Below, one piece after another: positions 1 through 50,167 of a DNA stretch of 64,000 nt. The notes beneath the pieces are model-generated. The model was not told where the DNA came from. It searched no databases and saw only the letters and a program-made list of their open reading frames with translations. The DNA comes from Thiothrix subterranea. Its GTDB lineage: Bacteria > Pseudomonadota > Gammaproteobacteria > Thiotrichales > Thiotrichaceae. Within the stretch, counting starts at the first letter, position 1. The number at the start of each line of letters is the position of its first letter. A program made the position numbers and the translations under genes. The stretch spans positions 1-64,000 of the forward strand of contig NZ_CP133216.1 of the NCBI RefSeq assembly GCF_030930995.1, in the 5' to 3' direction.

Positions 1-159
1 GCCTTCCTGACCTTCGGGCCAGCGGTAAATCTTGTAGCCGCAACCGATGGTGCAGTAGTCGCAAGCCGTGGTCATCACCGCCGCGTCCTTGGGTGGCAGC
101 GGCACTTTCTCGGCAGCGAAAATGTCGTAAGGGTTGGAACCCGTCTTTTCGGTACTCAT
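1..159 (-). CDS. idrA: Arsenite-oxidase/iodate-reductase-type molybdopterin large subunit, N-terminus only
   Basis: The first 53 codons of a bis-MGD molybdopterin oxidoreductase are visible; the gene runs off the window edge. A CDYCTIGC motif (Cys33, Cys36, Cys40) followed by GYKIYRWPEGQEG matches the [3Fe-4S]-binding N-terminus of the AioA/IdrA branch of the DMSO reductase family. The start at 159 is preceded by GAGAGGA and lies 14 bases after the Rieske gene, so the two are surely co-transcribed. The upstream pair of di-haem peroxidases favours iodate reductase IdrA over arsenite oxidase AioA, but the visible part cannot separate them. Activity would be periplasmic with the Rieske subunit as partner. 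Confidence 0.8.
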   Translation of the reverse strand, partial: MSTEKTGSNPYDIFAAEKVPLPPKDAAVMTTACDYCTIGCGYKIYRWPEGQEG

Positions 160-173
160 AGCATTCCTCTCTT

Positions 174-752
174 TCAGGCACTGCGCCCAACGGTGTTGTC
201 GGCATAGCCGTAAAGCAGGCCCATCACGCCCACTGCGTAAATGTCGTCGCCTTCCAGCTCCAGCATGATTTGCGGCAGGCTTTCCGTGCCATGCCCGGAC
301 ACCACCATGCCGTGGTGGGTGAGGTCAAAGGTGGTCAGGTGCAGCGGGCAAGGCCCCAATACCTGATACTGGTCTTTGTAAGTGGACTGCAAGGGGCCGC
401 CCATGTGGGTGCATTGCTGGTTGAAGGCCACCACGTCCTTGTCCGAGCCGACGCCGCCACCGGCTTGTGCACCCAGCTTGACCAGGATGTTGCTGACATC
501 TGCGAAGGGGTAGGCAAAATCTACCGGGACTCCGGCTTTCAGGGCAGACAGCGAACCGATTTTCTGGCGCTGGTAGCCTGCTTGCACTGCACTGACGGTT
601 TCCCCTGCGGCACGCACCAGACCGGGCAAGCCGCCGCCCAAGGCAACGACCCCCAGGGCCAGCCCGCCAGTCAGCAGGAAGCGGCGGCGGCTCATGCACA
701 CGTGGTCGTCATGCTGGTGCTGTCCGTTTTGTATGGCAATGGTCTTTTTCAT
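174..752 (-). CDS. idrB: Tat-exported Rieske subunit of an iodate reductase/arsenite oxidase-type enzyme
   Basis: 192 residues. Residues about 20-50 form a twin-arginine signal (SRRRFLLTGG, then a hydrophobic stretch to VRAAG). The Rieske [2Fe-2S] ligands are CTH (in QQCTHMGGPL) and CPLH (in GPCPLHLTTFD); the MVVSGHGTESLPQI stretch after them is typical of AioB/IdrB. The extra Cys pair that makes a disulfide in some arsenite oxidase Rieske subunits is absent. It would pass electrons between the molybdenum/3Fe-4S subunit and periplasmic cytochromes. It sits between the peroxidase genes and the large subunit in one minus-strand operon. Confidence 0.85.
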   Translation of the reverse strand: MKKTIAIQNGQHQHDDHVCMSRRRFLLTGGLALGVVALGGGLPGLVRAAGETVSAVQAGYQRQKIGSLSALKAGVPVDFAYPFADVSNILVKLGAQAGGGVGSDKDVVAFNQQCTHMGGPLQSTYKDQYQVLGPCPLHLTTFDLTHHGMVVSGHGTESLPQIMLELEGDDIYAVGVMGLLYGYADNTVGRSA

Positions 753-763
753 AACCTGATCTC

Positions 764-1933
764 CTATTCTTTGTCCGCCACGGCTGGCAGCGGTGCATAC
801 GGTGGCAGGGTGGGGGCATCCATCACGAGGGGTTCATCCATGCTCAGGGCTTCGAGGAAGGCTGCTAGGTCTTTTTGCTCATCCTCACTGAGTTTCAGCG
901 GCTTGAGCAGCTCGGCCTTGTTTCCGGCCTTGCCGCCACCTGCGTTGTAGAACGCCACCACTTCAGGCAGGGTCTTGAATGCGCCGTTGTGCATGAAGGG
1001 GCCGGTGTATTTCAGCTCGCGCAGGGATGGCACCCGGAACTTGCCCTTGTCCTTGGGGTTGTGGGTGACGTAGTAGTAACCTTCGTCGGTCTTGCCATCG
1101 CGGTATTCGCTTTCCGGCACGCCTTTCTGGTAAATCTCCCAACGGTGGGTGATCTGCAACAGGTTGTCGTCCTGATAGTCCTTGAGGTCTGGCACGCCCA
1201 GCGCGTAGAACTTCTGGTTGGAAGCCAGCGGCCCGTTATGGCACTGGATGCAACCCGCCTTGCCGTTGAACAGTTGCATACCGCGTGCCTGCGGTTCACC
1301 CAAGGCACTGGCATCGCCGTTGGCATGGCGGTCAAACGGCACTTTGTTGGCATCGGAAATGACGGTGCGCTCAAACGAGGCTATTGCCCGGTAAGCGTCG
1401 TTCATGCGCGGCCATTCCGAGCCGAACACCTGCTTAAAGGCGGTGACGTATTCCGGGATGTGGCGCAGGCGCATTTCCATCACCGAGGGGTCGCCGTTGC
1501 CTGCCACCGCGCCTTCCGCTGCTGCCGGGGCTTGTCCTTCCAGGCTGGTGACACCCCCTTCCCAGAAATACTTGTTGTAGAAGGCCGAGTTCAGCACGGT
1601 CTGGGAATTGCGCCAGTGCTTGGTGCCGGGGTAGCCGCGTGAAATCTGCCCGCCATCGCCCCAGCCGAGGGTAGGCAAATGGCAGGACACGCAGGGCATT
1701 GAGCCGTCACCGGACAGGCGGTTGTCCCAGAACAGTTGTTTGCCCAGCGCAATCTTTTCCGGGGTCATCCGGTTGTCCACCGGGTCAGAAACTGCCCCCA
1801 GCGGGGCGAGTGGCGGAAAGGCGGGCTTGTCTGCCGCGCCCTTGGCGGCTTCCGGGGCAGCGAACATGACACCGGACAGCATGGCTGTCAGGAGGCCGCC
1901 AACGGTCATCAAGGTCAATTTATGTGGGTTCAT
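764..1933 (-). CDS. idrP1: Di-haem cytochrome c peroxidase family protein (IdrP type)
   Basis: 389 residues with a signal peptide (about 1-26) and two CXXCH haem c motifs: CVSCH at 81-85 and CIQCH at 228-232. MauG/CcpA family features such as GKQLFWDNRLSGDGSMPC and FMHNGAFKTLPEV are clear. Such periplasmic enzymes reduce H2O2 with electrons from c-type cytochromes. In iodate reductase clusters two paralogues of this kind (IdrP1, IdrP2) are thought to remove peroxide or process oxygenated iodine products. It lies 11 bases upstream of the Rieske gene and 13 bases after its paralogue. Which paralogue is P1 and which is P2 is a guess. Confidence 0.8.
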   Translation of the reverse strand: MNPHKLTLMTVGGLLTAMLSGVMFAAPEAAKGAADKPAFPPLAPLGAVSDPVDNRMTPEKIALGKQLFWDNRLSGDGSMPCVSCHLPTLGWGDGGQISRGYPGTKHWRNSQTVLNSAFYNKYFWEGGVTSLEGQAPAAAEGAVAGNGDPSVMEMRLRHIPEYVTAFKQVFGSEWPRMNDAYRAIASFERTVISDANKVPFDRHANGDASALGEPQARGMQLFNGKAGCIQCHNGPLASNQKFYALGVPDLKDYQDDNLLQITHRWEIYQKGVPESEYRDGKTDEGYYYVTHNPKDKGKFRVPSLRELKYTGPFMHNGAFKTLPEVVAFYNAGGGKAGNKAELLKPLKLSEDEQKDLAAFLEALSMDEPLVMDAPTLPPYAPLPAVADKE

Positions 1934-1946
1934 TGCTTGGCTCTCC

Positions 1947-3134
1947 TCAGTTCTTGCCGAATTCGCGTGGTTTGAAGTCAGGCAATTTGGGCGCGTTGAC
2001 GACCACCTGTTCGCCGGACAGCGACAGCAGGAATTCCTTCAAGGCTGCCTTTTCGTCCGCACTCAGGCTGAGAGGCTTGAGTGCGCTGCCTTCCGCCCCG
2101 CCCTTGTCGTAGAAATCAATGACTTCTTCCAGCGTGGCTAACATGCCATTGTGCATGTAAGGCGCGGTGTACTTGAGGTCACGCAGCGGCGCGGTCTGGA
2201 ATTTCCCGGCATCCTTCGGGTCTTTGCTGATGGCCTGAAAACCTACGTCGGTGCGGGTGTTCATGTAGTTGGGCAGCCCGGAGGTGGAATAGTGGCGCAA
2301 CATCGTGATGGAACGCAGCGGGTCTTGCATGATTTCCGGGTTTTCCGGCACGCCGAGGCGGTGGAGCTTGCCATCCGAACCGATCGGGCCGTTGTGGCAG
2401 GACACGCAGTTGGCCTTGCCCTTGAACAGGTCGTAGCCGAGTTTGGCCTGCGGGGTGAGGGCGTTTGCATCCCCTTCCTTGTAGAAGTCGAAGGGTGCGT
2501 ACTGCGATTCCACGGTTTTGACGAATTCGCCGATGACGTTGAACATGTTGGGGCCGTAGGGGTCTTTGCTCTTGCCTTCAAAGGCTTTTTCCCATAGGGC
2601 AACGTATTCGGGGATTTGCTTGAGGCGTTCCTGCACCAGCCGCCCATCCATGTTCATGGTGTGGGTTTCCGTCACCATGTCACGCACCAGCGTCCCCATG
2701 TCCTTGCCTTCCAGCCGCCCGTCCCACATGAAGCGGTTGCGGTATTTGCTGTTGAGCAGGGTCGGGGCATTGCGGAAATGCAGCATCGAAGGGTAGCCCG
2801 CCGACAGCGCCATGCCATCGCCAAAGCCTTGTTTGGGGTCATGGCAGGAGGCGCAGGATACGCCCCAGTCGCCGGAAACGCGCTTGTCAAAGAACAGGTG
2901 TTTGCCGAGTTCCACCATGTCGGGCTTTTCCGGCGGCTTGAAGTCGGGCAATGGCAGGAGGTCGGGTGGCCCTGCGGGCTTGGCGGGTTCAGCAGGTTTG
3001 GCGGGTTTGGCTTCCGCAGGCTTGTCCTTGGCGGTTTCTGCCCAGACGGTGTGATAACCGCCCAGCGCAAACGCCATGCCGACAGCAACGGCTCCGACAC
3101 GCCGTGCCAACGGTTTGAGTTTGGGTATTGGCAT
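1947..3134 (-). CDS. idrP2: Di-haem cytochrome c peroxidase family protein (IdrP type), first gene of the cluster
   Basis: 395 residues from the ATG at 3134, which has GAGGAGA just upstream; a longer frame reaching 3188 is rejected because it would begin at the predicted sigma-54 transcription start. A signal peptide is followed by a Pro/Lys/Ala-rich linker (about 36-58, repeated KPAEPAKP) and two haem c sites, CASCH 94-98 and CVSCH 243-247. It resembles the next gene along its whole length, so the pair is a duplication. First gene of the operon and periplasmic. Role as for its paralogue: peroxide or oxyanion reduction with cytochrome c. Confidence 0.8.
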   Translation of the reverse strand: MPIPKLKPLARRVGAVAVGMAFALGGYHTVWAETAKDKPAEAKPAKPAEPAKPAGPPDLLPLPDFKPPEKPDMVELGKHLFFDKRVSGDWGVSCASCHDPKQGFGDGMALSAGYPSMLHFRNAPTLLNSKYRNRFMWDGRLEGKDMGTLVRDMVTETHTMNMDGRLVQERLKQIPEYVALWEKAFEGKSKDPYGPNMFNVIGEFVKTVESQYAPFDFYKEGDANALTPQAKLGYDLFKGKANCVSCHNGPIGSDGKLHRLGVPENPEIMQDPLRSITMLRHYSTSGLPNYMNTRTDVGFQAISKDPKDAGKFQTAPLRDLKYTAPYMHNGMLATLEEVIDFYDKGGAEGSALKPLSLSADEKAALKEFLLSLSGEQVVVNAPKLPDFKPREFGKN

Positions 3135-3198
3135 AATGTTCTCCTCGGTCATGCAGCATAAGGGTGGGATACCACTAAAGGTGCGCATTAACCTTAGA

Positions 3199-3213: not shown

Positions 3214-3318
3214 AAATATTAACAATATGATAAATATGGATTTATTGTAATTTTTGCATGATCAGGTGGATTGGGATCGACCAGTTCAGCCGGGTAAGCG
3301 GCAAGGAATCGACCGGCT

Positions 3319-5648
<2,330 letters not shown>

Positions 5649-5652
<4 letters not shown>

Positions 5653-8496: not shown

Positions 8497-9263
8497 GCCA
8501 ACACCATGCCATCAAACCCCACCCGCACCGACTCCGGTAGCACAGAAGGATTTTCCAGTAACCAAACATCCAGCGTATGATCAAGGTGGGTCAACACGGT
8601 TTGCTTGGGCTGGATGGATTCATGCAAAGCCAGCAAGGTATTCAAATCATTATGACCACGCGGGGTGGCGGTTGCAGGGGGAAAGGAACAATCCATCACC
8701 ACATAATCCGGCTGCGCGGCGTGCAGAAAATCCTGCACCTCGGTTTGTAATCCGGCAGTATCCGTCAGGTAGGCAAATACCTTGCCGCCTTGTTCCAGAC
8801 AATACCCCAGCGTCAACTTGGAATGGTTCAGCGGCAGCGGGGTGACATGCACCCCACCCAGCCGGAAGCTACGAAACGGGTAAGCCCGCTGGCTAAAATC
8901 CAGAATGCCGGGGTGTTTGTACAAATCCGCGCAACCTTCCGCATCATCCGGGCTGATCACGGGAATCCGGGTGTTTTTTCCCCAGCGAAGGTGGAACAAG
9001 CCCTGCACATGGTCAGGGTGGTAATGGGTCAGCAGGATATGTGACAGGCTACCCGGCGGGAAGCGTTCCGCCAAATCCATCAAGCCCGCATCCAGCAACA
9101 CCTGCTGTTCGCCATTGCTCAGCAGCGCACTGCATGGGCGGCGGCGCAGGCGGTCATCGGCACGCGCCTGTTCACAGGCAGTGCAGTGGCAGCCGTAAAC
9201 CGGCAACCCCGCTGCATTGCCCGTCCCCAATAGCTGTAGCGTTAACCCATCAATAGTTGGCAT
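8493..9263 (-). CDS. phnP: Phosphoribosyl 1,2-cyclic phosphodiesterase PhnP
   Basis: 256 residues, metallo-beta-lactamase fold with the metal motif HYHPDH (in LTHYHPDHVQGLF), a later TDTAG Asp and HNDLNT/THLDHTLD His residues. PhnP opens the 1,2-cyclic phosphate of ribose 5-phosphate left by the C-P lyase reaction, so that PhnN can act on the product. CHCTAC near residue 25 is the family's N-terminal zinc site. It overlaps phnN by 22 bp. Confidence 0.9.
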   Translation of the reverse strand: MPTIDGLTLQLLGTGNAAGLPVYGCHCTACEQARADDRLRRRPCSALLSNGEQQVLLDAGLMDLAERFPPGSLSHILLTHYHPDHVQGLFHLRWGKNTRIPVISPDDAEGCADLYKHPGILDFSQRAYPFRSFRLGGVHVTPLPLNHSKLTLGYCLEQGGKVFAYLTDTAGLQTEVQDFLHAAQPDYVVMDCSFPPATATPRGHNDLNTLLALHESIQPKQTVLTHLDHTLDVWLLENPSVLPESVRVGFDGMVLA

Positions 9264-9802
9264 AATTTTTCCCCCGCAGCATCCAATGCACCATCGTTAT
9301 CCAGTATTTGCAAACGGGGCAAATCCGGCAGGCTAAAGGCTTGCGCCCGTTGCAGACGTTGCTGGATGTCAGCGGCGGTTTCCCGCCCGCGCTGCTGTAG
9401 GCGCTGCGTCAGCACCTCCGGTTTGACCCGCACCCAAACGGGGACAAGCGTGGGGAACAGTGCCACGGCTTGCGGCAAATAAGCGCGTGAACCATTGACG
9501 ACCACATTCAAACCCAACTGCATCCAAGCGTTGATTTCCACTCCCACGCCATAGGACAAGCCGTGGCTTTCCCAATGCATGATAAAACAGCCCTGCGCCC
9601 GCCGTTCAGCAAACTCTGCCGGACTCAAGGCAATGTGGTTTTCCCCGCTGAGTTCCACCGGGCGGGTAATGTAACGGTGGGCGAAGGTAACGGGCTTCCC
9701 TGCCAAGCGCGTCCGCGCATAGCGCAACAGGCTGTCTTTCCCCGCCCCAGAAGCACCAACCAGATAGAACAGCGTGCCATCCTTGGTGTCAGGTATGGTC
9801 AT
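9242..9802 (-). CDS. phnN: Ribose 1,5-bisphosphate phosphokinase PhnN
   Basis: 186 residues from the ATG at 9802, which lies inside the end of phnM (14-bp overlap). The P-loop GASGAGKDSL and the guanylate-kinase-like fold are evident, with ITRPVELSGENHIALSP as in PhnN. It phosphorylates ribose 1,5-bisphosphate to PRPP, returning the ribose moiety of phosphonate breakdown to nucleotide metabolism. A longer frame to 9841 adds unconserved residues and is rejected. Confidence 0.9.
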   Translation of the reverse strand: MTIPDTKDGTLFYLVGASGAGKDSLLRYARTRLAGKPVTFAHRYITRPVELSGENHIALSPAEFAERRAQGCFIMHWESHGLSYGVGVEINAWMQLGLNVVVNGSRAYLPQAVALFPTLVPVWVRVKPEVLTQRLQQRGRETAADIQQRLQRAQAFSLPDLPRLQILDNDGALDAAGEKLCQLLMG

Positions 9803-10940
9803 ATTGCACCCGATAAGCCGCCGCCCCCTGCACCCAAACATCAGCCACTTGCGGTAATGCCCCTAAGTGGCTGACGGCAATCAGGTCGGCACGTTTGCCC
9901 ACGGCGATTTCCCCCCGGTCATGCAGCCCCGCTGCCTTGGCTGGGTTATTGGCAACCAGTTGTACCGCTTGCGGCAAAGTCAGCACTGCGTCTTCTACCA
10001 GTTTGAACACCGCAACAATCAACGCCGCCGGGGCATAGTCCGCACACAGGCAGGTGGCTACCCCGGCATGGATCGCATCCACCGCCCGCATGGAACCGGC
10101 TTGGCTTTTGCCCCGTAAAATATTGGGTGCGCCGAAAATGGTGTGCATCCCCTTGTCACAAGCGGCTTGCGCCGTTGCCAGATTGATGGGGAATTCGGAA
10201 ATGTTTACCCCTAACGCCGTCATCGTAGCGACCCGTTCCGGGGTGTCATCGTCGTGGCTGGCGGTGGCAATGCCTTGGGCATGGGCAGCCGCCACCAGCG
10301 TCTGGATACGGTCGATTGCCCCGGCAGCTTCATCCTGCTTGCGTTGCAGCAGCGCATCCAGTTCCGCTTCGGATTTTTGGTAGGTACGGGCAATGTAGTC
10401 ACGGTAAGCCGCCACATCCTTGAACTGCCCTTGCCCCGGTGTGTGATCCATGAAAGAAATCAGGTGCGCTTCCTGCTTTTCCAGCAAGTCCAGCAGTACC
10501 GGAAACCCGGTCGGGTCGGTAATTTCGTAGCGGCAGTGTACCCGGTTGTCCACCAAGGCGTGCGGCATCCAATCATGCACTGCGCGAGCAATAGATGCCG
10601 CAAACGCATTGTTACGTACCCCCAGTTCTTCATTGGCAAAGGATAAGGCATGGAACACGGTGGTAATGCCCGCTGCGGCATTGCGTTTGTCGGCTTGCGC
10701 ACAGGCAAAATCCAGCGGGAAATGCACATTGGGGCGGGGTTCGACTTCTTTTTCCAGCGCATCGCAGTGCAGGTCGATCATACCGGGCAGCAAGGTTTTG
10801 CCGGACAGGTTTTCCACCCGCGCATCCGGGGCTGTTTCAGGGTTAACCGCAGCGATCACGCCGTCTTCCAGCAACAGGCTGGCATTCTCCAGCACACAGT
10901 CAGCCAGCACGATACGGGCGTTGGTGAGTAAGGTTTTCAT
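9789..10940 (-). CDS. phnM: Alpha-D-ribose 1-methylphosphonate 5-triphosphate diphosphatase PhnM
   Basis: 383 residues, amidohydrolase superfamily. Metal ligands are visible as DLHCDALEKEVEPRP near residue 57, HALSF, a SHDDDTPERV block and CLCADYAPAAL near the end. PhnM removes pyrophosphate from the phosphonate-ribose triphosphate made by PhnGHIL, giving the substrate for PhnJ. Its start overlaps the end of phnL by 4 bp (ATGA). Confidence 0.93.
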   Translation of the reverse strand: MKTLLTNARIVLADCVLENASLLLEDGVIAAVNPETAPDARVENLSGKTLLPGMIDLHCDALEKEVEPRPNVHFPLDFACAQADKRNAAAGITTVFHALSFANEELGVRNNAFAASIARAVHDWMPHALVDNRVHCRYEITDPTGFPVLLDLLEKQEAHLISFMDHTPGQGQFKDVAAYRDYIARTYQKSEAELDALLQRKQDEAAGAIDRIQTLVAAAHAQGIATASHDDDTPERVATMTALGVNISEFPINLATAQAACDKGMHTIFGAPNILRGKSQAGSMRAVDAIHAGVATCLCADYAPAALIVAVFKLVEDAVLTLPQAVQLVANNPAKAAGLHDRGEIAVGKRADLIAVSHLGALPQVADVWVQGAAAYRVQYDHT

Positions 10941-11665
10941 GGTGTAGTCCCTTCAAAAAAATGTTCAGTCCCCGGCGGTGGGGCGAGTTCCACCACCGCA
11001 TCGGCGAGGCGTTCCACCAGCGTGGGGCTGTGAAAAATGGCTAACAAGCCCGTGCCGCCCTGTTTCAGTTCGGCAATCAGTTCCACCACGCGGTCGGTGG
11101 TTTTGGGGTCAAGGCTGGCGGTGGGTTCGTCCAGCAGCAACAGGCGCGGTTTTGCCAGCAGCCCGCGTGCCAGATTGACGCGCTGGCGTTCCCCGCCGGA
11201 AAAGGTGGCGGGTGAGACTCCCCACAGGCGTTCCGGCAAGTTCAGGCGTTGCAGGATGTCGCGGGCTTGGGCGCGTGCCGTGCCACGTTCGACACCCCGC
11301 TGGAACAGTGGCATTGCCACCACATCTTCGGTGCTTTGGCGCGGCAAGGTATGCAGGAACTGGGTCACAAAGCCGATGTCCCGCTGGCGCAGGGCGAGGA
11401 TCTGATGCTCATCCGCTGTTGCCAGATCCACCCTACCACCGTTGGCAGTGCGGTACAGCAACTGCCCGCCACTCGGCAAATACGTGCGGTAAATGCCCTT
11501 GAGTACCGTGGACTTGCCCGCCCCAGTAGGGCCAATTAACGCCGTCAAACGACCGGGGTACACGTTCAGGTTGACATGGCTGCTGGAGGGCAAGGTTTTA
11601 CCCTGCTCGTGCAACACAAAGGTTTTGGAATAGTCACGGACTTCCAGAATCGGTTGGTCAGACAT
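10937..11665 (-). CDS. phnL: PhnL, ATP-binding cassette protein of the C-P lyase pathway
   Basis: 242 residues with Walker A GPTGAGKST, signature FSGGERQRVNLARG and Walker B LLLLDEPTASLD. PhnL is an ABC-type ATPase that works with PhnGHI in the first phosphonate-activation step and does not act as a transporter. It lies 9 bases after phnK. Length equals that of the E. coli protein within a few tens of residues. Confidence 0.9.
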   Translation of the reverse strand: MSDQPILEVRDYSKTFVLHEQGKTLPSSSHVNLNVYPGRLTALIGPTGAGKSTVLKGIYRTYLPSGGQLLYRTANGGRVDLATADEHQILALRQRDIGFVTQFLHTLPRQSTEDVVAMPLFQRGVERGTARAQARDILQRLNLPERLWGVSPATFSGGERQRVNLARGLLAKPRLLLLDEPTASLDPKTTDRVVELIAELKQGGTGLLAIFHSPTLVERLADAVVELAPPPGTEHFFEGTTP

Positions 11666-11674
11666 GCTTAACTC

Positions 11675-12535
11675 CTACAAGGCGGAAGCCACTAAGCGTT
11701 GGGTATAGGCGTGCTGCGGGTCTTCCAGAATCTGGTCGGTCAGCCCTGACTCAATCACGCGCCCGTATTTCATGACCAAGGTGCGCCCCGCCAGCAAGCG
11801 GATCACACCCAAGTCGTGGGTGACGGCAATCATTGCTGTACCCAGTTCTTGCTGGATTTCCATAATCAGGTCGAGGATGGCGGCCTGCACCGACAAATCC
11901 AGCCCGGTGGTGACTTCATCCAGCAACAGCAAGGGCGGGTTGGTGGCGAGTGCTTTGGCAATCTGTACCCGTTGTTGCATCCCACCGGAAAAGTTTTTCG
12001 GGAGTTCATCCATGCGTTGTGTCAACACTTCGGTACGGCGCAACAGCGTGGTGGCGCGTTGGCGAATCTCGCCGTAATGGCTGAGGTTGCTCATCAACAG
12101 GCGTTCGGCGATATTGCCCCCGGCGGATACATTGAAGTTCAGCCCCAACACCGGGTTTTGGTACACCATGCCAAACCGCTGGTTGCGTAACTGGCGTTGT
12201 TGCGCGGCATTGAGGGCGTACAAATCGTAGGCATTGCCTTGGTCATAAAAGACCGCCGTGCCGCAGGTCGGGGCTTCATCAAAATACAGTGCCTTGACAG
12301 CCGTGGATTTCCCTGACCCCGATTCCCCTATGATGCCGAGGATTTCACCCCGGTACAGGTCAAACGAGAGGTTGTGCGCGGCTACCACACTGCCACAACG
12401 CGGGCAAATATTGGTGTCGTGTTCTGGGCCGGTGAGATCAAAACAGTGTGGGCAACCGTTACCGTACACTTTCCCCAAGCCGCGTACTTCCAGCACCTTG
12501 TCGAGGGTGGGTGTGCTGATGTTGTCATTCATCAT
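11675..12535 (-). CDS. phnK: PhnK, ABC-type ATPase of the C-P lyase complex
   Basis: 286 residues from the ATG at 12535 (tandem ATG at 12532), overlapping phnJ by 11 bp; a frame reaching 12643 would lie wholly inside phnJ and is rejected. Walker A GESGSGKST, signature FSGGMQQRVQIAKA and Walker B LLLLDEVTTGLD are complete. Residues 25-50 carry CPHCFDLTGPEHDTNICPRCG, a four-Cys zinc-finger-like insert found in some PhnK proteins and absent from the E. coli one. PhnK binds PhnJ in the lyase complex. Confidence 0.9.
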   Translation of the reverse strand: MMNDNISTPTLDKVLEVRGLGKVYGNGCPHCFDLTGPEHDTNICPRCGSVVAAHNLSFDLYRGEILGIIGESGSGKSTAVKALYFDEAPTCGTAVFYDQGNAYDLYALNAAQQRQLRNQRFGMVYQNPVLGLNFNVSAGGNIAERLLMSNLSHYGEIRQRATTLLRRTEVLTQRMDELPKNFSGGMQQRVQIAKALATNPPLLLLDEVTTGLDLSVQAAILDLIMEIQQELGTAMIAVTHDLGVIRLLAGRTLVMKYGRVIESGLTDQILEDPQHAYTQRLVASAL

Positions 12536-13406
12536 GCGCTTGCTCCTGCTGTTGGGTGCAATAGTCACTGTCTGAACATTGGTAGACTTTTCCGCCCGCA
12601 TGAGGCGTATGGGGGTCGCTGAACTCATCCAGAAAACTGGCACGCGAACCGCACTGCTGGCAGGCGCGGCGTTCCCCGCTTACCGGGTCGGTAAAGTCTT
12701 CGGTACGGAATGGCACATCATCAAACACCAAGGGTTCAGTGCGGGTGTAGGGGGGGACGGCGTAAATCTTTTTCTCACGCCCAGCCCCCAGCAACACCAG
12801 TGCCGCACTCTGGTGCAACTTCGGTACGTCGTAGCGAGGGATGGGGGAAGGGTCGATCACGTAATGCCCGTTGATACGGGTCGGGTAGCGGTGTGAAATG
12901 GTGATCTCACGGAATTGCACCAAATCTTCGTACAATTTCACCAGCAAGCGCGAATAATCGGCTTCACCGTGCATCACTTTGCGGCGAGTTTCCGAGGGTT
13001 CGACGATCACCAGCGGGTCAGGGTAAGGCACTTGCAACACCAATATCTGCTGTTCCTGCAACCCCGTTTCCGGGATGCGGTGACGGCTCTGGATCAGCGT
13101 CGCCTCCTGCACGCGGGTAGTGGTGTGGATACCGGGGCAAGTCAGCTCAATGAAATGGCGCAGGTTGACCGCATTGACCGAATCATCCGACCCTTGATCA
13201 ATGACTTTCAGGGTTTCACCCTCACCGATCAGGCTCAAGGTGAGTTGCAGCCCACCTGTGCCAAAGCCTCTCCCCATCGGCATTTCCCGACTGGCATAGG
13301 GAACTTGATAACCGGGGATGGCAATCGCTTTGAGAATAGTACGGCGCACTTCCTTTTTGGCATAACTGTCCAGAAAACCAAACGGGTAATGGGTGGTGGT
13401 ACTCAT
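12525..13406 (-). CDS. phnJ: Carbon-phosphorus lyase catalytic subunit PhnJ
   Basis: 293 residues from the ATG at 13406, which overlaps the phnI stop (ATGA). The radical-SAM iron-sulfur cysteines are in the C-terminal part as CQQCG followed by YQCSDSDYC, matching the four conserved Cys of PhnJ. It cleaves the C-P bond of the ribosyl methylphosphonate, releasing the alkane (methane from methylphosphonate). Slightly longer than the 281-residue E. coli protein, mainly at the C-terminus. Confidence 0.93.
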   Translation of the reverse strand: MSTTTHYPFGFLDSYAKKEVRRTILKAIAIPGYQVPYASREMPMGRGFGTGGLQLTLSLIGEGETLKVIDQGSDDSVNAVNLRHFIELTCPGIHTTTRVQEATLIQSRHRIPETGLQEQQILVLQVPYPDPLVIVEPSETRRKVMHGEADYSRLLVKLYEDLVQFREITISHRYPTRINGHYVIDPSPIPRYDVPKLHQSAALVLLGAGREKKIYAVPPYTRTEPLVFDDVPFRTEDFTDPVSGERRACQQCGSRASFLDEFSDPHTPHAGGKVYQCSDSDYCTQQQEQAHDE

Positions 13407-14506
13407 GCCTTGCCCTCCGGTTGTTGCTGTTGCGTGGTGCGTAACCTGTCCATGTCCGACTGGAACGTGACGTAATGCGGCATTTTGTAGTGGGTACAAA
13501 AACCCATTGAGTCGATGCCATCCACGTGCAGCAGCACAAATTCAGGGTCTTCTGACGGGTTTTGTGGCTTGCCAGCCTGCCCGTTTTGCAAGGCACGATC
13601 CAGAATCGCCATCGAAATGGCCTTGACTTCGTTATGCCCAAAACACGCACCGTAGCCGAGGGTAAAGGTCGGTTTCTGGCCTTTTTCTGCCTTGCCATAC
13701 ATGGCAACCACTTCGCATTCGGTGATTAGCACCTCCCCCGCCTCAATCAGCTCACCGCTGATGGGGTGGGGCAGCAATACCGGCAAGTAGCCTACCCGCA
13801 ATTCCGCTACGGTAGGATGCACATCGCCATAACCGCGCATATTGGAATAGGCAATCGCCAGCAATGACCCGGTTTCCCCCCGTGCCAGCGTCGATAAGGC
13901 TGCCGAACGCGGCACGGGGAACACCAGTGGCTCGCGGGTAATGTCAAATGGCGTACCCGTGGTAGGTTGCGGTTCAGGCAACAAGCCTTCGGCACGCAGT
14001 GCATCCAGCACCTTGGGGAAGGTATCGGGTATGTCCGTCTGTGGCGTATCCGCCAGCCATGCCTTGGCAATGGCGCGGAATTGTTCGGGTGACTCATCCA
14101 GCAACTGCATTTTTAACAAACGTAAGGCATAGTCGGTGGTTGCCCCCAGCATTTGCCCCCCCGGAATGTCCTTGAATGCCGAGGAAATGCGCCGTACTAC
14201 CCGCAGGTTGCGGGTATCCAGCAACGGGCTTTCCAGCAAGCGCGGCTGGGTGGAACGGAATGCCCGTAACGCAAAGGCCGCCTCTAAGGTATCGCCCAGA
14301 CTTTGCTTGATGGCGAGTGCCGCCAGTGTTGGGTGGTATAGCCCACCTTCGGACATCACCCGGCTGTGCAAATAACGCAACTGGGTTTCAATGGTGTGTG
14401 TGTCCAGCGGTAACCCGGTCTCACCCTGTTCAGTGCGCAGGTAATCCAGCAACGCTTCTGCCCCGGCGATGGCTTTACCCCCCCCTTTGATGGCTACGTA
14501 ACCCAT
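13403..14506 (-). CDS. phnI: PhnI, nucleosidase/transferase subunit of the C-P lyase complex
   Basis: 367 residues. The ATG at 14506 shares its A with the phnH stop (TAATG) and has GGAGGTG upstream; the frame open to 14626 is rejected. MGYVAIKGGGKAI is the typical PhnI N-terminus. With PhnG, PhnH and PhnL it exchanges the adenine of ATP for phosphonate to form ribose 1-phosphonate 5-triphosphate. Overlaps phnJ by 4 bp. Confidence 0.92.
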   Translation of the reverse strand: MGYVAIKGGGKAIAGAEALLDYLRTEQGETGLPLDTHTIETQLRYLHSRVMSEGGLYHPTLAALAIKQSLGDTLEAAFALRAFRSTQPRLLESPLLDTRNLRVVRRISSAFKDIPGGQMLGATTDYALRLLKMQLLDESPEQFRAIAKAWLADTPQTDIPDTFPKVLDALRAEGLLPEPQPTTGTPFDITREPLVFPVPRSAALSTLARGETGSLLAIAYSNMRGYGDVHPTVAELRVGYLPVLLPHPISGELIEAGEVLITECEVVAMYGKAEKGQKPTFTLGYGACFGHNEVKAISMAILDRALQNGQAGKPQNPSEDPEFVLLHVDGIDSMGFCTHYKMPHYVTFQSDMDRLRTTQQQQPEGKA

Positions 14507-15054
14507 TAGCACACCTCCAGTTGTGTAGTCCGTGGGATCGCCACAAACTGGCGTTGCGTATCGGTTAAAATGCAATCCACCCCCAGCGGGAAGTGACAGC
14601 ACCAGTCCGCCCGTTGCGCCAGCCAAGAAGGATGCAAACCCGCCAGTGCCAGCGTGGTTTCCTGCTGGATACCAGGGCCGCGCAAGCGCAACGCCTGTGT
14701 GCCGTTACCGATACTTGCCACAGCCAATAACAAGGTGGCAGATTGCTCAGGGTCGGTGAGTGTTCCCAACAGCGGGGTAAAATCTGCTGCTTGTGTGCCG
14801 TCACACACAATAAACTGTGCGCTTGAAGCACTGGCAGGTTTGGCTTGCAACAGTGACCACTGTGTGGCTTCCAACAAGCCATCCCGGTCACACAAGCTGC
14901 TTGTGCCATCCAGCAGCGTTGCCAGCAGCGCGTGATAAGCCGCCGCCGGTAACGCATCAGCGAGGGTTTGCACCTTGCCGGGGTAAGAATAGGCATCCAG
15001 TAATTGCCGGAACACCTGTTGTTGCAGCGGCGTTTGCCAAATCGGCTCAATCAT
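14506..15054 (-). CDS. phnH: PhnH, C-P lyase complex subunit
   Basis: 182 residues, PhnH family (PLP-transferase-like fold without PLP chemistry). LLDAYSYPGKVQ near the start and RLRGPGI further on fit the family. It forms part of the PhnGHIJ core that activates and splits phosphonates. It overlaps phnG by 8 bp and phnI by one base. Confidence 0.9.
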   Translation of the reverse strand: MIEPIWQTPLQQQVFRQLLDAYSYPGKVQTLADALPAAAYHALLATLLDGTSSLCDRDGLLEATQWSLLQAKPASASSAQFIVCDGTQAADFTPLLGTLTDPEQSATLLLAVASIGNGTQALRLRGPGIQQETTLALAGLHPSWLAQRADWCCHFPLGVDCILTDTQRQFVAIPRTTQLEVC

Positions 15055-15520
15055 CGTTTTCTCCTGTGGTTTCCAGCAGGGAAAAATTCACGTGGGTTTT
15101 CGCCAACATGGTCTTACGGTTGGCTTGCACTTGGTCACGAATTACCTGTCCTTGCGCCACCGCTTGGGCAACCGCTTCCGCACCCGGCAACTGTCCGCTC
15201 ACAATGGCATCGCAGACTGCTAAAGCTTCTGCCAATTCAGCGTTGTCCTGCATGACGTGTACTGCCCCTTGTGCTTGCGTGCCATCGGGCAGGGTCAATT
15301 CCACCCATGCACTGGCGACTGGAAATTCGCCCAGATAGAAAGCCTGATGCAAGGTACTTTCCTGCAACTGCAACATGCCTAAACCCTGTTCTGGCAGGGC
15401 GAGATACCTGCGTTGCCAGCTTTGTGCCAACCGCTGTGCCAAGGCAATGACCTCGGCCGCAGGCAGGCTTGCCAGTGCAGGCAAGCAGACGCTACGCCCT
15501 TCGTAATGGTGCTTATCCAT
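15047..15520 (-). CDS. phnG: PhnG, C-P lyase complex subunit
   Basis: 157 residues from the ATG at 15520, which follows a strong GGAGGGAGG; an upstream TTG at 15535 is less likely. PhnG family, subunit of the PhnGHIJ core complex. The conserved stretch around EVTLPDG-like WVELTLPDGTQAQGAVHVMQ is visible. The gene begins 11 bases after the second phnE. Confidence 0.88.
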   Translation of the reverse strand: MDKHHYEGRSVCLPALASLPAAEVIALAQRLAQSWQRRYLALPEQGLGMLQLQESTLHQAFYLGEFPVASAWVELTLPDGTQAQGAVHVMQDNAELAEALAVCDAIVSGQLPGAEAVAQAVAQGQVIRDQVQANRKTMLAKTHVNFSLLETTGENDD

Positions 15521-31037: not shown

Positions 31038-31496
31038 ATGAATGCACCATTACTTAACATTGCCATTAACCCGGTTAACGCCGCGCCAATGGATGTAACG
31101 CCCACCACGACGATGGAAATGTGTGGGTTGGGTCTGGCTTGCCTGATCGACATCCGCCAGACATTTGAGCTGGAGATCAAAGGCGAAATCCCCCGTGCCA
31201 CCCATATCCCATTTTTCAACGTCAAACAGTTCTTTGGCTTTCAGCTCAGTGATGACGAGCAGGAAATACTCGATGCTGACGAACCCAACGATCTGGACAT
31301 CCGTTCCTTTATCAAAGCCATCAACACCCTAAAACAAAGCCGGGATTGTACCTTCCTGATCGTGTGCAACAGCGGCAAACGCAGTGTTTGCGCTACCAAG
31401 TTGTTGCGTGAACTCGGCTATCCCAAGACGTTCTCTGTGCAAGGCGGTTTTATTGCCTTGAAACCCTTACTACCCATGCCCGGAGCAAGCGCATGA
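31038..31496 (+). CDS. Rhodanese-like domain protein in the mod operon
   Basis: 152 residues. Rhodanese blocks: CLIDIRQTFELEIKGEIPRATHIPFF and IVCNSGKRSVCATKLLRELGYPKTFSVQGGF, with the active Cys in VCNSGKRS. It may supply sulfane sulfur, for instance for molybdenum cofactor sulfuration, but the substrate is unknown. It lies 41 bases after modE and its stop overlaps the moeA start (ATGA). Confidence 0.75.
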   Translation: MNAPLLNIAINPVNAAPMDVTPTTTMEMCGLGLACLIDIRQTFELEIKGEIPRATHIPFFNVKQFFGFQLSDDEQEILDADEPNDLDIRSFIKAINTLKQSRDCTFLIVCNSGKRSVCATKLLRELGYPKTFSVQGGFIALKPLLPMPGASA

Positions 31497-32749
31497 GCAA
31501 TACCCTGAAACCAGCCATTTCCTGTGACACCATGCCGCAGGGCACACTCAGCGTCGAACAGGCGCAATCACGCATACTGGAAAGCATTGCGCCACTGCAC
31601 GACATAGAAGATGTCGAATTGCTGCAAGCTGGCGGACGTATGCTTGCCCAGTCCGTCCATGCGCAAATGAATGTCCCGCCCCATACCAATTCTGCGATGG
31701 ATGGTTATGCCCTACGCCATGCCGATCTGGTTGAGGGTGTGTTGTTGAAAATTGTCGGTAGCGCTTTCGCGGGTCGTCCCTTTGCTGGTGTGGTGCAGGC
31801 AGGCGAATGTGTGCGCATTATGACGGGCGCGGTGTTGCCCGCTGGCGCAGATACCGTGGTCATGCAGGAAAATGTGCAGCGCGAAGGTGATGCCATTCAA
31901 ATTTCTGGCAAACTCGCTATCGGCGCAAACGTCCGCCATGCCGGGGAGGACAGCAAGGTGGGTGATCTGCTGCTGACCGCCGGACACAAGCTGAATGCTG
32001 CTGATATTGGTCTGCTGGCTTCGCAAGGAATTGCCAAAGTGGCGGTGATCCGCCGTCTGCGTGTGGCGTTTTGCTCCACGGGCGACGAACTCAAAACCCT
32101 CGGTGACACCCTGCAACCCGGCGATATTTACGACAGTAACCGCTATACCCTCTACACCTTGCTGCAAAAGCTCGATGTGGACGTGTTCAATCTGGGTGTG
32201 GTACGCGATACCCGCGAATCGGTGGAAAAGGTGTTCCACCATGCCCGCGATATGGCAGATGTTTTCATCACCAGCGGCGGTGTATCCGTCGGCGAGGCGG
32301 ATTACGTCACCGACACCCTGAAAAGCATGGGGCAAGTCAATTTCTGGAAAATCGCCTTCAAACCGGGAAAACCGTTGGCGTTTGGTACCTTGGGCAACTG
32401 CCTGTTCTTCGGCTTGCCGGGGAATCCGGTGTCAGTGATGGCAACCTTCCTGCTGTTCGTGCGCCCTGCCATTCTCGCTTTGCGCGGGGAAACCGTGCCA
32501 CTTGTGCCGGAATACACCGCCATTTGCACGACACCCCTGAAAAAAGAACCGGGGCGCAAAGATTACCAACGCGGCATTTGTGAGCGTGACAGCAGCGGGC
32601 AATGGCACGTCCGCACTACGGGCAACCAAGGTTCACATGTGTTGCGCTCCATGAGCCAAGCCAACTGTTTTATTGTCTTGCCGCTTGAGTGGGGCAATGT
32701 GGAAGCGGGAATAGCGGTCACGATTATCCCGTTCGAGGGGCTGATGTGA
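31493..32749 (+). CDS. moeA: Molybdopterin molybdenumtransferase MoeA
   Basis: 418 residues. MoeA blocks: PPHTNSAMDGYAL, IMTGAVLPAGADTVVMQE, FCSTGDEL...GDIYDSNRY, FITSGGVSVGEADY and FFGLPGNPVS. It inserts molybdate into adenylated molybdopterin. Placement in the molybdate uptake operon fits the demand made by the molybdoenzyme at the left window edge, though other molybdoenzymes may exist. Confidence 0.93.
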   Translation: MSNTLKPAISCDTMPQGTLSVEQAQSRILESIAPLHDIEDVELLQAGGRMLAQSVHAQMNVPPHTNSAMDGYALRHADLVEGVLLKIVGSAFAGRPFAGVVQAGECVRIMTGAVLPAGADTVVMQENVQREGDAIQISGKLAIGANVRHAGEDSKVGDLLLTAGHKLNAADIGLLASQGIAKVAVIRRLRVAFCSTGDELKTLGDTLQPGDIYDSNRYTLYTLLQKLDVDVFNLGVVRDTRESVEKVFHHARDMADVFITSGGVSVGEADYVTDTLKSMGQVNFWKIAFKPGKPLAFGTLGNCLFFGLPGNPVSVMATFLLFVRPAILALRGETVPLVPEYTAICTTPLKKEPGRKDYQRGICERDSSGQWHVRTTGNQGSHVLRSMSQANCFIVLPLEWGNVEAGIAVTIIPFEGLM

Positions 32750-32814
32750 CTGGTTGCGTACTGACTTCCTGATTTCACCCATGATTGTTTCAACACACTC
32801 CAAAAGGAACAACC

Positions 32815-33633
32815 ATGAAACTGTTCAAACAAACCCTGCTTGCGGCCGCTATCGCTTGCAGCACTGCCAGCGCGTGGGCAGACGACCTGAAAATTGCCGC
32901 CGCCGCTGACCTCAAGTTCGCGCTGGAAGAGATCAAGACCGCTTATGTGGCTGCCAACCCCGCTGACAAGGTGGACATCACCTTCGGTTCATCCGGCAAG
33001 CTCAGCACCCAGATCGAACAAGGCGCACCGTTTGACCTGTTCTTTTCCGCCGACATCAAATACCCCAAACAACTGGCAGAAGCCAAACAAGCCGCGTCCG
33101 AGGTGAAACCCTATGCCGTGGGGCGGATTGTGTTGTGGAGCAATACCCACGATGCCAGCAAACTGACGCTGGAAAACCTCACCGAAGACAAATTCAAGCA
33201 CATTGCGATTGCCGACCCTTCGCACGCGCCGTATGGCAAACGTGCCGAAGAAGCCCTCACAGCCAGCAAACTGTGGGATACGGTCAAGCCTAAGCTGGTC
33301 TACGGTGAAAACATCTCGCAAACCGCCCAGTTCGTGGAATCCGGCAACGCTGACATTGGCATCATCGCCCTGTCACTGGCACTGAACCCGGAACTCTCCA
33401 AACAAGGTGGCTACTATTTGATCGACAACAAGCTGCATGAACCGCTGGAACAAGCCTTCATCGTCACTGCCCACGGCAAGGATAATGCGGCTGCCCAACG
33501 CTTTGCCGATTACATGCAAGCCCCCGAAGGCCGCAAAGTGATGGTGAAATACGGCTTTGTACTGCCGGGTGAAGGTGCGGATACGGCTGATAAACCAGCG
33601 GGTGATAAACCTGCTGCCACGGTTGCGCAATAA
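32815..33633 (+). CDS. modA: Molybdate-binding periplasmic protein ModA
   Basis: 272 residues, signal peptide ending SAWA (about 22). ModA features: AAAADLKFALEEI, FGSSGKLSTQIEQGAPFDLFFSAD and the HAPYGKRAEEAL block. A Pro/Ala/Asp tail of about 20 residues follows the folded part. The stop overlaps the modB start (TAATG). AAAGGAAC precedes the ATG at 32815. Confidence 0.92.
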   Translation: MKLFKQTLLAAAIACSTASAWADDLKIAAAADLKFALEEIKTAYVAANPADKVDITFGSSGKLSTQIEQGAPFDLFFSADIKYPKQLAEAKQAASEVKPYAVGRIVLWSNTHDASKLTLENLTEDKFKHIAIADPSHAPYGKRAEEALTASKLWDTVKPKLVYGENISQTAQFVESGNADIGIIALSLALNPELSKQGGYYLIDNKLHEPLEQAFIVTAHGKDNAAAQRFADYMQAPEGRKVMVKYGFVLPGEGADTADKPAGDKPAATVAQ

Positions 33634-34334
33634 TGGACTGGCTGCCTTTTACTGCTGAAGACTGGGCAGCCATCCGCCTGACGCTGGAGCTTTCCGCCGG
33701 GGCTACCCTGATCCTGTTGGTATTGGGTACGCCGCTGGCCTGGTGGCTGGCGCAAACCCGTTCCCGCTTCAAGCCCGTGGTGGCTGCACTGGTGGCAATG
33801 CCGCTGGTGTTGCCGCCAACGGTACTGGGGTTTTACCTGTTGATGCTGATGGGGCCGCACGGTTGGGTGGGGCAAGCTACCCAAGCCTTGGGGTTAGGGC
33901 GTTTGCCGTTCAGTTTTGGCGGGATGTTGGTTGCGTCGGTATTGTTTTCGATGCCGTTTGTGGTGCAACCGCTGCACAATGCGTTTGAAGGGCTGGATAA
34001 ACGAATGCTGGAAGCTGCTGCGACCTTGCGGGCAAGCCCGTTGGATACGTTTTTCAGCGTGGTGTTGCCGCTGTCCCGGCGTGGTTTCCTCACTGCCACC
34101 ATTTTGGGTTTTGCGCATACGGTAGGTGAATTCGGTGTGGTGTTGATGGTCGGGGGCAATATCCCCGGTCAGACACGGGTGGTTTCCATGCAAATTTACA
34201 ACCATGTGGAATCCATGCAATACAGCCATGCGCATTGGCTGGCGGGGCTGATGGTGGCATTTGCCTTCATTGTGCTGCTTTCCATGCACCTGATGAATCA
34301 CAAGCTGGATGTGGAAAAGGCGGTGAAAACATAA
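33633..34334 (+). CDS. modB: Molybdate ABC transporter permease ModB
   Basis: 233 residues, five membrane helices, with the permease loop EAAATLRASPLDTFFSVVLP and HTVGEFGVVLMVGGNIPGQT typical of ModB. No modC follows; the next gene is a LysR-type regulator whose start overlaps the modB stop (TAATG). The ATPase must come from elsewhere in the genome. Confidence 0.92.
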   Translation: MDWLPFTAEDWAAIRLTLELSAGATLILLVLGTPLAWWLAQTRSRFKPVVAALVAMPLVLPPTVLGFYLLMLMGPHGWVGQATQALGLGRLPFSFGGMLVASVLFSMPFVVQPLHNAFEGLDKRMLEAAATLRASPLDTFFSVVLPLSRRGFLTATILGFAHTVGEFGVVLMVGGNIPGQTRVVSMQIYNHVESMQYSHAHWLAGLMVAFAFIVLLSMHLMNHKLDVEKAVKT

Positions 34335-49174: not shown

Positions 49175-50167
49175 ATGAAAGGCATTATGTTACTGATCAG
49201 CACACCCCAGAATTCTGCCATCGTCACCCTCGGCAATGCCGAGTTGCCGGTCGTGGTCAGTGCTGCCGGTGAACGTGCCACTTACCGTTTCGTCGAGTTC
49301 TTCACGGCCCAGATCCGTAACCCCAATACCCGGCGTGCGTACCACACGGACATCAGCCAGTTTTTCCTTTGGTGCCATTCCCAGAACCTGAAACTCCATC
49401 AGATACACTCCATTCATGTGGCCACCTATGTTGAGCAGTTGCAGCGACACGTTTCTGCACCGACGGTAAAACAGCACATGGCGGCCATCCGTAAGTTGTT
49501 TGACTGGCTGGTGGTGGGACATGTAATGGAAACCAACCCATCACAGGCGGTGCGTGGCCCCAAGTATGTGGTCAAGCGTGGCAAGACGCCGATCCTGACC
49601 CCTGAAGATACCCGTGCCCTGTTTGACAGTATCCCGACGGATACCCTGATTGGCCTGCGTGACCGAGCCTTGCTGGCAGTGATGGTCTACAGCTTTGCCC
49701 GCGTGGATGCGGCTGCCAAAATGCGGGTCAAGGATTACTACCCGAATGGGAAACGCTGGTGGATTCGCTTGCATGAGAAAGGTGGAAAACACCATGAAAT
49801 GCCTGCCCACCATACCCTGGAACAGTATCTGGATGAGTATATTGAGGCCGCTGGGATCAAGGATGACCCGAAAGGTTTCCTGTTCCGCACTTTCAAGGGC
49901 AAGACCGGAACCATGACTGAAAACCGGATGTTACAAACTTATGCTTGGCAGATGGTGCAGCGCAGGGTCGCAGCGGCAGGGCTTTCCCTGTCAGGTATCT
50001 GTAACCATTCTTTCCGGGGAACCGGGATCACGACTTATTTGAAGAATGGCGGGACGCTGGAAAAAGCCCAGCAAATGGCCAACCACGAATCACCGCGCAC
50101 CACCAAGCTCTACGACCGCACCGATGATGAAATTTCACTGGATGAAGTGGAAAAGATCATTATCTGA
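49175..50167 (+). CDS. Tyrosine recombinase/integrase
   Basis: 330 residues: N-terminal SAM-like core-binding domain (about 25-110) and catalytic domain with Arg in YSFARVDAA, Lys in HEKGGKHHEMP, HSFRGTGI (His-x-x-Arg) and Tyr in TTKLYDRT. Likely mobilises or resolves the plasmid-like island. An alternative start is the ATG at 49187. No attachment site could be recognised nearby. Confidence 0.88.
   Translation: MKGIMLLISTPQNSAIVTLGNAELPVVVSAAGERATYRFVEFFTAQIRNPNTRRAYHTDISQFFLWCHSQNLKLHQIHSIHVATYVEQLQRHVSAPTVKQHMAAIRKLFDWLVVGHVMETNPSQAVRGPKYVVKRGKTPILTPEDTRALFDSIPTDTLIGLRDRALLAVMVYSFARVDAAAKMRVKDYYPNGKRWWIRLHEKGGKHHEMPAHHTLEQYLDEYIEAAGIKDDPKGFLFRTFKGKTGTMTENRMLQTYAWQMVQRRVAAAGLSLSGICNHSFRGTGITTYLKNGGTLEKAQQMANHESPRTTKLYDRTDDEISLDEVEKIII

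What the first reader, a model, noticed from the sequence alone, without database searches (positions are those of the whole stretch)
1..3134. Probable iodate reductase (idr) cluster: two di-haem peroxidases, Rieske subunit and AioA-like large subunit
Seen: two paralogous di-haem CXXCH peroxidase genes, a Tat-exported AioB/IdrB-type Rieske gene, and an AioA/IdrA-type N-terminus, packed with gaps of 11-14 bases. Known: arsenite oxidase operons lack the peroxidase pair, while dissimilatory iodate reductase clusters (idrABP1P2) have exactly these four genes. Inferred: this sulfur-oxidiser-like bacterium may respire or detoxify iodate. Gene order here is P-P-B-A.
Basis: partly seen in the sequence, partly recalled or inferred. 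Interest (0 to 1): 0.85.

Follow-up and report, generated by a model that had tools for sequence, protein, structure and literature searches.

The report
Plasmid-borne iodate reductase gene cluster
A probable Thiothrix, a sulfur-oxidising bacterium, carries on a conjugation-type plasmid a set of genes that look able to reduce iodate to iodide, which suggests that this respiratory trait may travel between bacteria on plasmids.

Summary
The window starts at base 1 of a 151,453-bp contig, evidently a circular plasmid, and the large subunit closes across the contig ends (896 aa). It is 78% identical to IdrA of Denitromonas iodatirespirans IR-12, whose idrA deletion abolishes growth on iodate (PMC8692401). 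It groups with that protein at 100/99 support; AioA stands apart at 100/100. P1-P2-B-A is the usual order: 64 of 67 relatives with room show it. None of 8 Aio control loci has the peroxidase pair. Beyond the window the cluster continues with cytochrome c, MoaA, a sensor kinase and a sigma-54 activator. A consensus sigma-54 promoter lies 63 bases before idrP1. The plasmid shares replication and Trb-type conjugation genes with Thiothrix fructosivorans pTfr153; idr sits in cargo not found there. None of the 15 other held genomes of the genus has idr. It is a new member of a known kind. New, as far as I found, are the conjugation-type plasmid as vehicle and the promoter architecture. Iodate reduction itself is untested.

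The parts
1947..3134 (-). idrP1, di-haem cytochrome c peroxidase (395 aa, Sec-type signal by eye)
   Evidence: CCP_MauG 4.9e-37 (longer frame 1947-3188); best PDB relatives are cytochrome c551 peroxidases, 3hq6 E 3.6e-39; 63% identical to the IR-12 copy
764..1933 (-). idrP2, di-haem cytochrome c peroxidase (389 aa)
   Evidence: CCP_MauG 1.6e-39; PDB 3hq6 1.6e-41; 70% identical to the IR-12 copy
174..752 (-). idrB, Rieske [2Fe-2S] small subunit with twin-arginine motif (192 aa)
   Evidence: TIGR02694 112.3 bits, cut-off 95.65; 63% identical to the IR-12 copy
1..159 (-). idrA, first 53 codons; the gene (896 aa) continues across the contig ends at C1:151453-148922, outside the window
   Evidence: joined frame without stop; 78% identical to IR-12 IdrA; clade with it 100/99; CX2CX3C at residue 33 and six Idr-type diagnostic residues
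3198..3213 (-). sigma-54 promoter TGGCAC-N5-TTGCT, 63 bases before the idrP1 start codon
   Evidence: 11 of 11 consensus positions, 0 of 200 first-order shuffles as good; coordinates and distance; sites of at least 9 of 11 in 15 of 16 idr loci that have the close response regulator; consensus recalled
3299..3315 (-). possible degenerate activator box (CGGTYA-N5-TRACCG with 3 mismatches); not claimed
   Evidence: weak: chance p 0.35; 85 bases upstream of the -24 site, within the roughly 30-145 seen in relatives by my arithmetic
31493..34334 (+). moeA and two molybdate-transport-like genes (ModA-type binding protein, ModB-type permease) on the same plasmid; possible cofactor support
   Evidence: MoeA_N/MoCF_biosynth/MoeA_C, SBP_bac_11 and BPD_transp_1; the Mod names and the link to idr are inference
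49175..50167 (+). tyrosine integrase at the edge where the plasmid becomes alike to T. fructosivorans pTfr153
   Evidence: Phage_integrase; 93% DNA identity to pTfr153

Best explanation
This is an iodate reduction island (idrP1-idrP2-idrB-idrA-cytC-moaA-HK-RR), cargo on a conjugation-type plasmid of a sulfur-oxidising gammaproteobacterium, very probably a Thiothrix. Proposed working: a periplasmic double-Cache histidine kinase senses iodate or a product of it (inferred) and activates the sigma-54 response regulator, which drives the -24/-12 promoter before idrP1 (promoter shown as sequence, use inferred). IdrAB is exported by the Tat system on IdrB's signal (inferred). It takes electrons from a c-type cytochrome through the Rieske subunit and reduces iodate at the Mo centre to hypoiodous acid, which disproportionates to iodide and iodate (model of PMC8692401). 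IdrP1 and IdrP2 remove peroxide formed on the way. MoaA, and perhaps MoeA and molybdate uptake genes on the plasmid, help to supply the cofactor (inferred).
For: IdrA 78% identical to IR-12 IdrA over residues 17-896. Clade of window, L020, IR-12 and L026 at UFBoot/aLRT 100/99; AioA apart at 100/100. All six residues that separate 82-83 of 83 Idr rows from 8 of 8 Aio rows are of Idr type in the window. Order P1-P2-B-A in 64 of 67 loci with room. None of 8 Aio loci has P1/P2. Cytochrome c, MoaA, HK and RR lie downstream on the same strand, the accessories also seen in Azonexus and described in PMC8801600. Sigma-54 site 11/11; rpoN present. No Cld-like family in the genome, as reported for IR-12, so the Cld step proposed for strain SCT is not available. 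Trb, TraG, Rep and Par families identified; backbone shared with pTfr153, idr in the unshared part.
Against: No activity data. Residues recalled as arsenite ligands of AioA are kept in the window except Glu to Asp (H202, D210, R435, H439), so sequence does not exclude arsenite as substrate. IdrA passes the arsenite-oxidase model. The activator palindrome seen in relatives is not significant here. The regulators lie downstream here; in L028, the one close relative with the same arrangement, idrP1 has no good sigma-54 site, and a box and sigma-54-like site precede a different operon. One relative with room, L089, has idrA without any partner match. MOB-suite typed the sister plasmid pTfr153 as non-mobilizable.
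Confidence: 0.88

Rival explanations
1. It is an arsenite oxidase (Aio) operon with two accidental peroxidase neighbours; the enzyme oxidises arsenite.
For: Passes TIGR02694 and TIGR02693; 28-30% identical to AioA over about 770-800 residues; three of four recalled arsenite-site residues kept.
Against: Falls in the Idr group, not with AioA. Peroxidase pair with IdrAB in 64 of 67 loci with room and in none of 8 Aio loci. The matched stretch of NT-26 AioA scores 1406 bits against 423 on the same model. No arsenic-resistance family among the 10 proteins scanned on L014, a partial scan.
Confidence: 0.05
2. A true Idr system that serves detoxification of iodate or another oxidant under micro-oxic conditions, not respiration.
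For: Related idr genes occur in aerobes such as Roseovarius azorensis (L054, 65% identical), whose washed cells reduced iodate only after static growth with iodate (PMC11445184, abstract); two peroxidases; the related regulator pair in L028 stands before a different redox-like operon.
Against: The nearest proven relative respires iodate (PMC8692401); a dedicated cytochrome c and regulator pair fit respiration.
Confidence: 0.3
3. A recently arrived, poorly expressed passenger in this host.
For: Absent from 15 of 15 other held genomes of the genus; GC 0.598 against 0.539 for the 48.8-121.3 kb part of the plasmid.
Against: All frames intact, P1, P2, B and A 63-78% identical to IR-12, consensus promoter, rpoN and MoaA present.
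Confidence: 0.1

Closest known systems
idr cluster of Denitromonas iodatirespirans IR-12 (L023)
   Same: P1-P2-B-A order; IdrA 78%, P1 63%, P2 70%, B 63%, HK 52%, RR 59%, cytochrome c 50% identical
   Different: HK-RR upstream there, downstream here; molybdopterin synthesis genes are missing from its island (PMC8801600, passage) but moaA is present here; the copy here lies on a plasmid with conjugation genes
idr cluster of Azonexus hydrophilus plasmid NZ_CP151407 (L016)
   Same: Plasmid-borne; HK, RR, P1, P2, B, A, cytochrome c and moaA all present; IdrA 75% identical
   Different: Regulators upstream; a TnsA-like gene nearby; typed non-mobilizable; different IdrA subclade
Arsenite oxidase aioBA with aioX, kinase and aioR (Pseudorhizobium NT-26, L018)
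   Same: Mo and Rieske two-subunit enzyme; sigma-54-type regulator 36% identical
   Different: No peroxidases; AioX binding protein; AioA only 28% identical and in a separate clade
Thiothrix fructosivorans plasmid pTfr153
   Same: Replication, partition, TraG, DUF3363 and Trb genes; 71-97% DNA identity over the shared blocks
   Different: The roughly 79-kb cargo that holds idr was not found in the 149,900 of 153,331 bases compared

Membership tests
Dissimilatory iodate reductase (IdrABP1P2) | Large subunit falls in the IdrA clade, apart from AioA | tested here: met
   Groups with IR-12 IdrA at 100/99, Aio apart at 100/100 (37 of 92 rows); quick tree of 92 rows agrees
Dissimilatory iodate reductase (IdrABP1P2) | Adjacent pair of di-haem peroxidases and Rieske subunit in the conserved order | tested here: met
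Dissimilatory iodate reductase (IdrABP1P2) | [3Fe-4S] motif CX2CX3CX70S, and Tat export signal on IdrB but none on IdrA | tested here: inconclusive
   CX2CX3C met; the serine follows after 69, not 70, residues by my count; signals judged by eye, no predictor run
Dissimilatory iodate reductase (IdrABP1P2) | Iodate-dependent growth or iodate loss | not testable with these tools
   needs culture or purified enzyme
Arsenite oxidase (AioAB) | Large subunit inside the AioA clade | tested here: not met
Arsenite oxidase (AioAB) | Passes NCBIfam TIGR02693 and TIGR02694 | tested here: met
   423 and 112 bits, but IR-12 IdrA also passes TIGR02693 at 439 bits, so that model does not separate the two
Arsenite oxidase (AioAB) | Arsenic genes (AioX, ars) as neighbours | tested here: inconclusive
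   none among the 10 proteins scanned on L014; upstream only the adjacent gene 3319-5652 was scanned
Conjugative plasmid (Trb/IncP-like) | Coupling protein, secretion ATPases and channel proteins | tested here: met
   TraG, TrbB, TrbE, TrbF, TrbG, TrbI and TrbL families
Conjugative plasmid (Trb/IncP-like) | Relaxase | tested here: inconclusive
   only a DUF3363 protein beside traG (520 of 647 aa scanned); its relaxase role is recalled
Conjugative plasmid (Trb/IncP-like) | Transfer between cells | not testable with these tools
   sister plasmid pTfr153 is typed non-mobilizable by MOB-suite

The most novel reading that the evidence does not exclude
Iodate respiration is a transmissible plasmid trait. 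A self-contained kit (sensor kinase, sigma-54 activator and promoter, electron-donor cytochrome, cofactor enzyme, reductase and peroxidases) has moved from a betaproteobacterial source onto a conjugative plasmid lineage of sulfur-oxidising Thiothrix, where sulfide or thiosulfate oxidation could drive iodate reduction and so link the sulfur and iodine cycles.
Probability: 0.4. Interest if true: 0.68.

Novelty: new member of a known kind. Interest (0 to 1): 0.5.

Why it matters
The iodate reduction island is known to be horizontally transferred. The papers I read report island predictions and markers of transfer but no specific vehicle (PMC8692401 section 10; [quoted passage not shown] A copy on a plasmid with a Trb conjugation set offers a concrete vehicle that mating can test. 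It also brings idr into a probable Thiothrix, where none of the 15 other held genomes of the genus has it. And because IdrA passes NCBI's arsenite-oxidase model, the Azonexus copy is annotated as arsenate reductase (azurin); such names can hide iodate reduction.

Tried and rejected
Arsenite oxidase: rejected on tree, neighbours and diagnostic residues, although the NCBIfam models pass. A Cld-dependent route as proposed for strain SCT: no Cld-like family in the genome. A viral carrier: none of 30 pattern matches in the viral collection encodes a relative. Gene order as a variant: rejected. The palindrome CGGTYA-N5-TRACCG was spotted by eye in the upstream regions printed and then counted on the same regions: at most 2 mismatches in 15 of 16 loci with the close regulator and in 6 of 50 others, so the count is not independent of the choice. 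The window's own best copy has 3 mismatches (chance p 0.35), so I do not claim it here. The Fisher test for the sigma-54 sites (15 of 16 against 5 of 51, p 6.5e-10) treats related loci as independent, which they are not. Structure prediction of the kinase sensor gave a double-Cache fold and no ligand.

Parts used and dropped: one search found 478 relatives and kept the best 80. L057 (698 aa) was dropped from both trees; the careful tree used 37 of 92 rows (dropped: L007, two Aio rows and 52 others, chosen by me). The palindrome count had 50 rather than 51 other loci because L022 has too little upstream sequence. Kinases of 4 of 16 relatives were left out of the sensor alignment (L023, L028, L031, L061; start codon unsure) and L016 also from the structure job, so 11 of 16 plus the window's were used. 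Paper searches listed 20 of 201 and 20 of 4,376 papers. Yamazaki 2020 (strain SCT) was not looked up and is cited only through other papers.
Full report
What is there. The finding covers four minus-strand genes at the very start of the window: P1 1947-3134, P2 764-1933, a Rieske subunit 174-752, and the first 53 codons of a large molybdenum subunit at 159-1. The intergenic gaps are 13, 11 and 14 bases. The window is bases 1-64000 of contig C1, which is 151,453 bases long. The rest of the large subunit lies at the other end of that contig. Joined, the frame is 896 aa without a stop and matches relatives over its whole length. C1 is therefore circular, a plasmid beside a second contig of 4,255,904 bases.

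What the proteins are. P1 and P2 are di-haem CCP_MauG proteins, 41% identical to each other. Their nearest solved relatives are bacterial cytochrome c551 peroxidases; MauG is more distant. The Rieske protein and the large subunit pass NCBI's arsenite-oxidase models (112 bits against 95.65; 423 against 359). The large-subunit model does not separate Aio from Idr, since IR-12 IdrA also passes (439 bits), whereas the matched stretch of NT-26 AioA scores 1406.

Which branch. A scan of genome contigs (GTDB species) found 478 relatives and kept the best 80 loci, among them Denitromonas iodatirespirans IR-12 with 78% identity. In that organism deletion of idrA abolishes growth on iodate and complementation restores it (PMC8692401, sections 8-10 read). 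A quick tree of 92 rows and a careful tree of 37 of them both place the window's protein in a four-member clade with IR-12 IdrA (100/99 in the careful tree), inside a mainly betaproteobacterial group. AioA forms its own group (100/100; 6 Aio rows). The tool warns that long branches join Idr to Aio; the window-IR-12 node lies far inside Idr. Six alignment columns separate 82-83 of 83 Idr rows (window included) from 8 of 8 Aio rows, and the window has the Idr state in all six. Residues recalled as arsenite ligands in AioA are kept, except that Glu is Asp in 76 of 83 Idr rows.

Neighbours. Of 67 relatives with enough sequence on the left, 64 show P1-P2-B-A in this order and strand. The exceptions are L096 (P1 after A), L097 (same order with a split match) and L089 (no partner found). 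Fifteen more loci are truncated on that side, one of which still shows the full order. None of 8 Aio loci from the plasmid collection has a P1 or P2 match in flanks of 5-6 kb.

The rest of the operon. Downstream of idrA on the same strand lie a class I cytochrome c (179 aa), MoaA, a histidine kinase with a Cache-type sensor, and a sigma-54 response regulator. The Azonexus hydrophilus plasmid NZ_CP151407 has the same eight genes, with the regulators upstream. These accessories are known: PMC8801600 reports that of ten islands two lack the two-component system, five the cytochrome and five moaA; PMC10149662 (passages seen) names a sigma-54 regulator and a kinase upstream in Azoarcus DN11. They are not new.

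Control. A -24/-12 element that fits my recalled consensus at 11 of 11 positions, TGGCAC-N5-TTGCT, lies 63 bases before the idrP1 start (3213-3198, minus strand). Sites scoring 9 or more occur before idrP1 in 15 of 16 loci with the close regulator and in 5 of 51 others; the loci are related, so this is support and not a clean test. In those same 15 loci a palindrome CGGTYA-N5-TRACCG with at most 2 mismatches lies upstream (6 of 50 others). I chose the palindrome by eye from these sequences, and the window has only a degenerate copy no better than chance. The exception, L028, has its regulators downstream of idrA, as the window does, followed by a perfect palindrome and a sigma-54-like site in front of a different operon. 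So the regulator pair may serve other genes, there and perhaps here. The kinase sensor folds as a double Cache (mean pLDDT 81; best PDB match 2p7j, E 2.8e-16); the ligand is unknown. The genome has rpoN. A library search for iodate together with rpoN returned one paper, on antimonite oxidation in Agrobacterium (listing only).

The vehicle. pTfr153 of Thiothrix fructosivorans shares with C1 blocks at about 48.8-59.3, 70.5-92.6 and 102.2-121.3 kb at 71-97% DNA identity (149,900 of 153,331 bases compared). On C1 these hold Rep, ParA, TraG, TrbB, TrbE, TrbF, TrbG, TrbI, TrbL and a DUF3363 relaxase candidate, as annotated on pTfr153. About 79 kb, from 121.3 kb through the origin to 48.8 kb, is cargo without DNA match in pTfr153, and idr lies in it. 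GC is 0.598 for the idr operon, 0.555 for the rest of the cargo and 0.539 for the 48.8-121.3 kb part. Among 95 genomes searched, own included, an IdrA-level match was found in none of 15 congeners, in 1 of 44 others of the family (G048) and in none of 35 others of the class, the best of which reached 184 bits. The G048 copy is 48% identical and groups with a Vibrio megaplasmid copy, so it is a separate acquisition. The host is very probably a Thiothrix: the backbone matches T. fructosivorans, and genome sizes and contig numbers in the genus list resemble those in PMC8570282 (passages seen). A library search for Thiothrix with iodate returned no paper. Searches combining iodate reductase or idrA with plasmid terms listed no paper on a plasmid-borne idr (each 20 listed of more, 10 of 10; listings, with passages of PMC10746228 and PMC9732548 seen). 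The library holds open-access papers only, so this is weak evidence of novelty.

Mechanism and limits. I follow the IR-12 model (PMC8692401, section 9): cytochrome c to IdrB to IdrA, iodate to hypoiodous acid, disproportionation to iodide and iodate, peroxide removed by IdrP1/P2. The absence of a Cld-like family here fits that model better than the SCT model. Two chromosomal genes with the MoaA C-terminal domain exist, so the plasmid MoaA looks like an extra copy rather than a necessity. Shown: sequence, order, phylogeny, promoter consensus, plasmid backbone. Inferred: substrate, sensing, direction of transfer, conjugation.

Verdict. The cluster is a new member of a known kind, with moderate interest that rests on the plasmid vehicle, the host and the promoter architecture.

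Noticed in passing
L028 11884-15900: Regulator pair downstream of idrA, followed by a perfect palindrome and a sigma-54-like site in front of a 588-aa gene that looks membrane-bound: the idr-type regulator may control a second operon.
   Followed up: partly
L030 and L049; L041 and L088: Two different idr clusters in one genome bin each (JALHPU01, Sulfuritalea; JACPEG01, Betaproteobacteria), 65-77% identical to the window's IdrA.
   Followed up: no
L089: An IdrA homologue (53% identity) in a planctomycete contig with no P1, P2 or B match in the 20.7-kb locus.
   Followed up: no
L124 747-6271: A divergent, Vibrio-like idr cluster in another genus of the same family, on a 22-kb contig.
   Followed up: partly
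L016 14314-17582: TnsA-like gene and a 741-aa gene without Pfam match beside the idr cluster of the Azonexus plasmid: possible Tn7-type mobilisation.
   Followed up: partly
C1:141185-142862 (L014 5186-6863) and window 45108-46689: MbnB/TglH-type and DUF2063 genes next to the idr regulators, and what looks by eye like a second such pair in the window.
   Followed up: partly
window 9242-16344: Run of genes that look by eye like a phosphonate C-P lyase (phn) cluster in the plasmid cargo; no family search done.
   Followed up: no
window 47509-49148: HipA-type gene with a small partner at the edge of the part shared with pTfr153: possible toxin-antitoxin pair.
   Followed up: partly
C1:142834-144495: The longest frame of the response regulator (553 aa) overlaps the kinase frame; its receiver domain begins at residue 103, so the real start is probably internal.
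   Followed up: no
L063: idr genes in a contig labelled Euryarchaeota; grouping with planctomycete and Omnitrophota sequences suggests misbinning or transfer.
   Followed up: no
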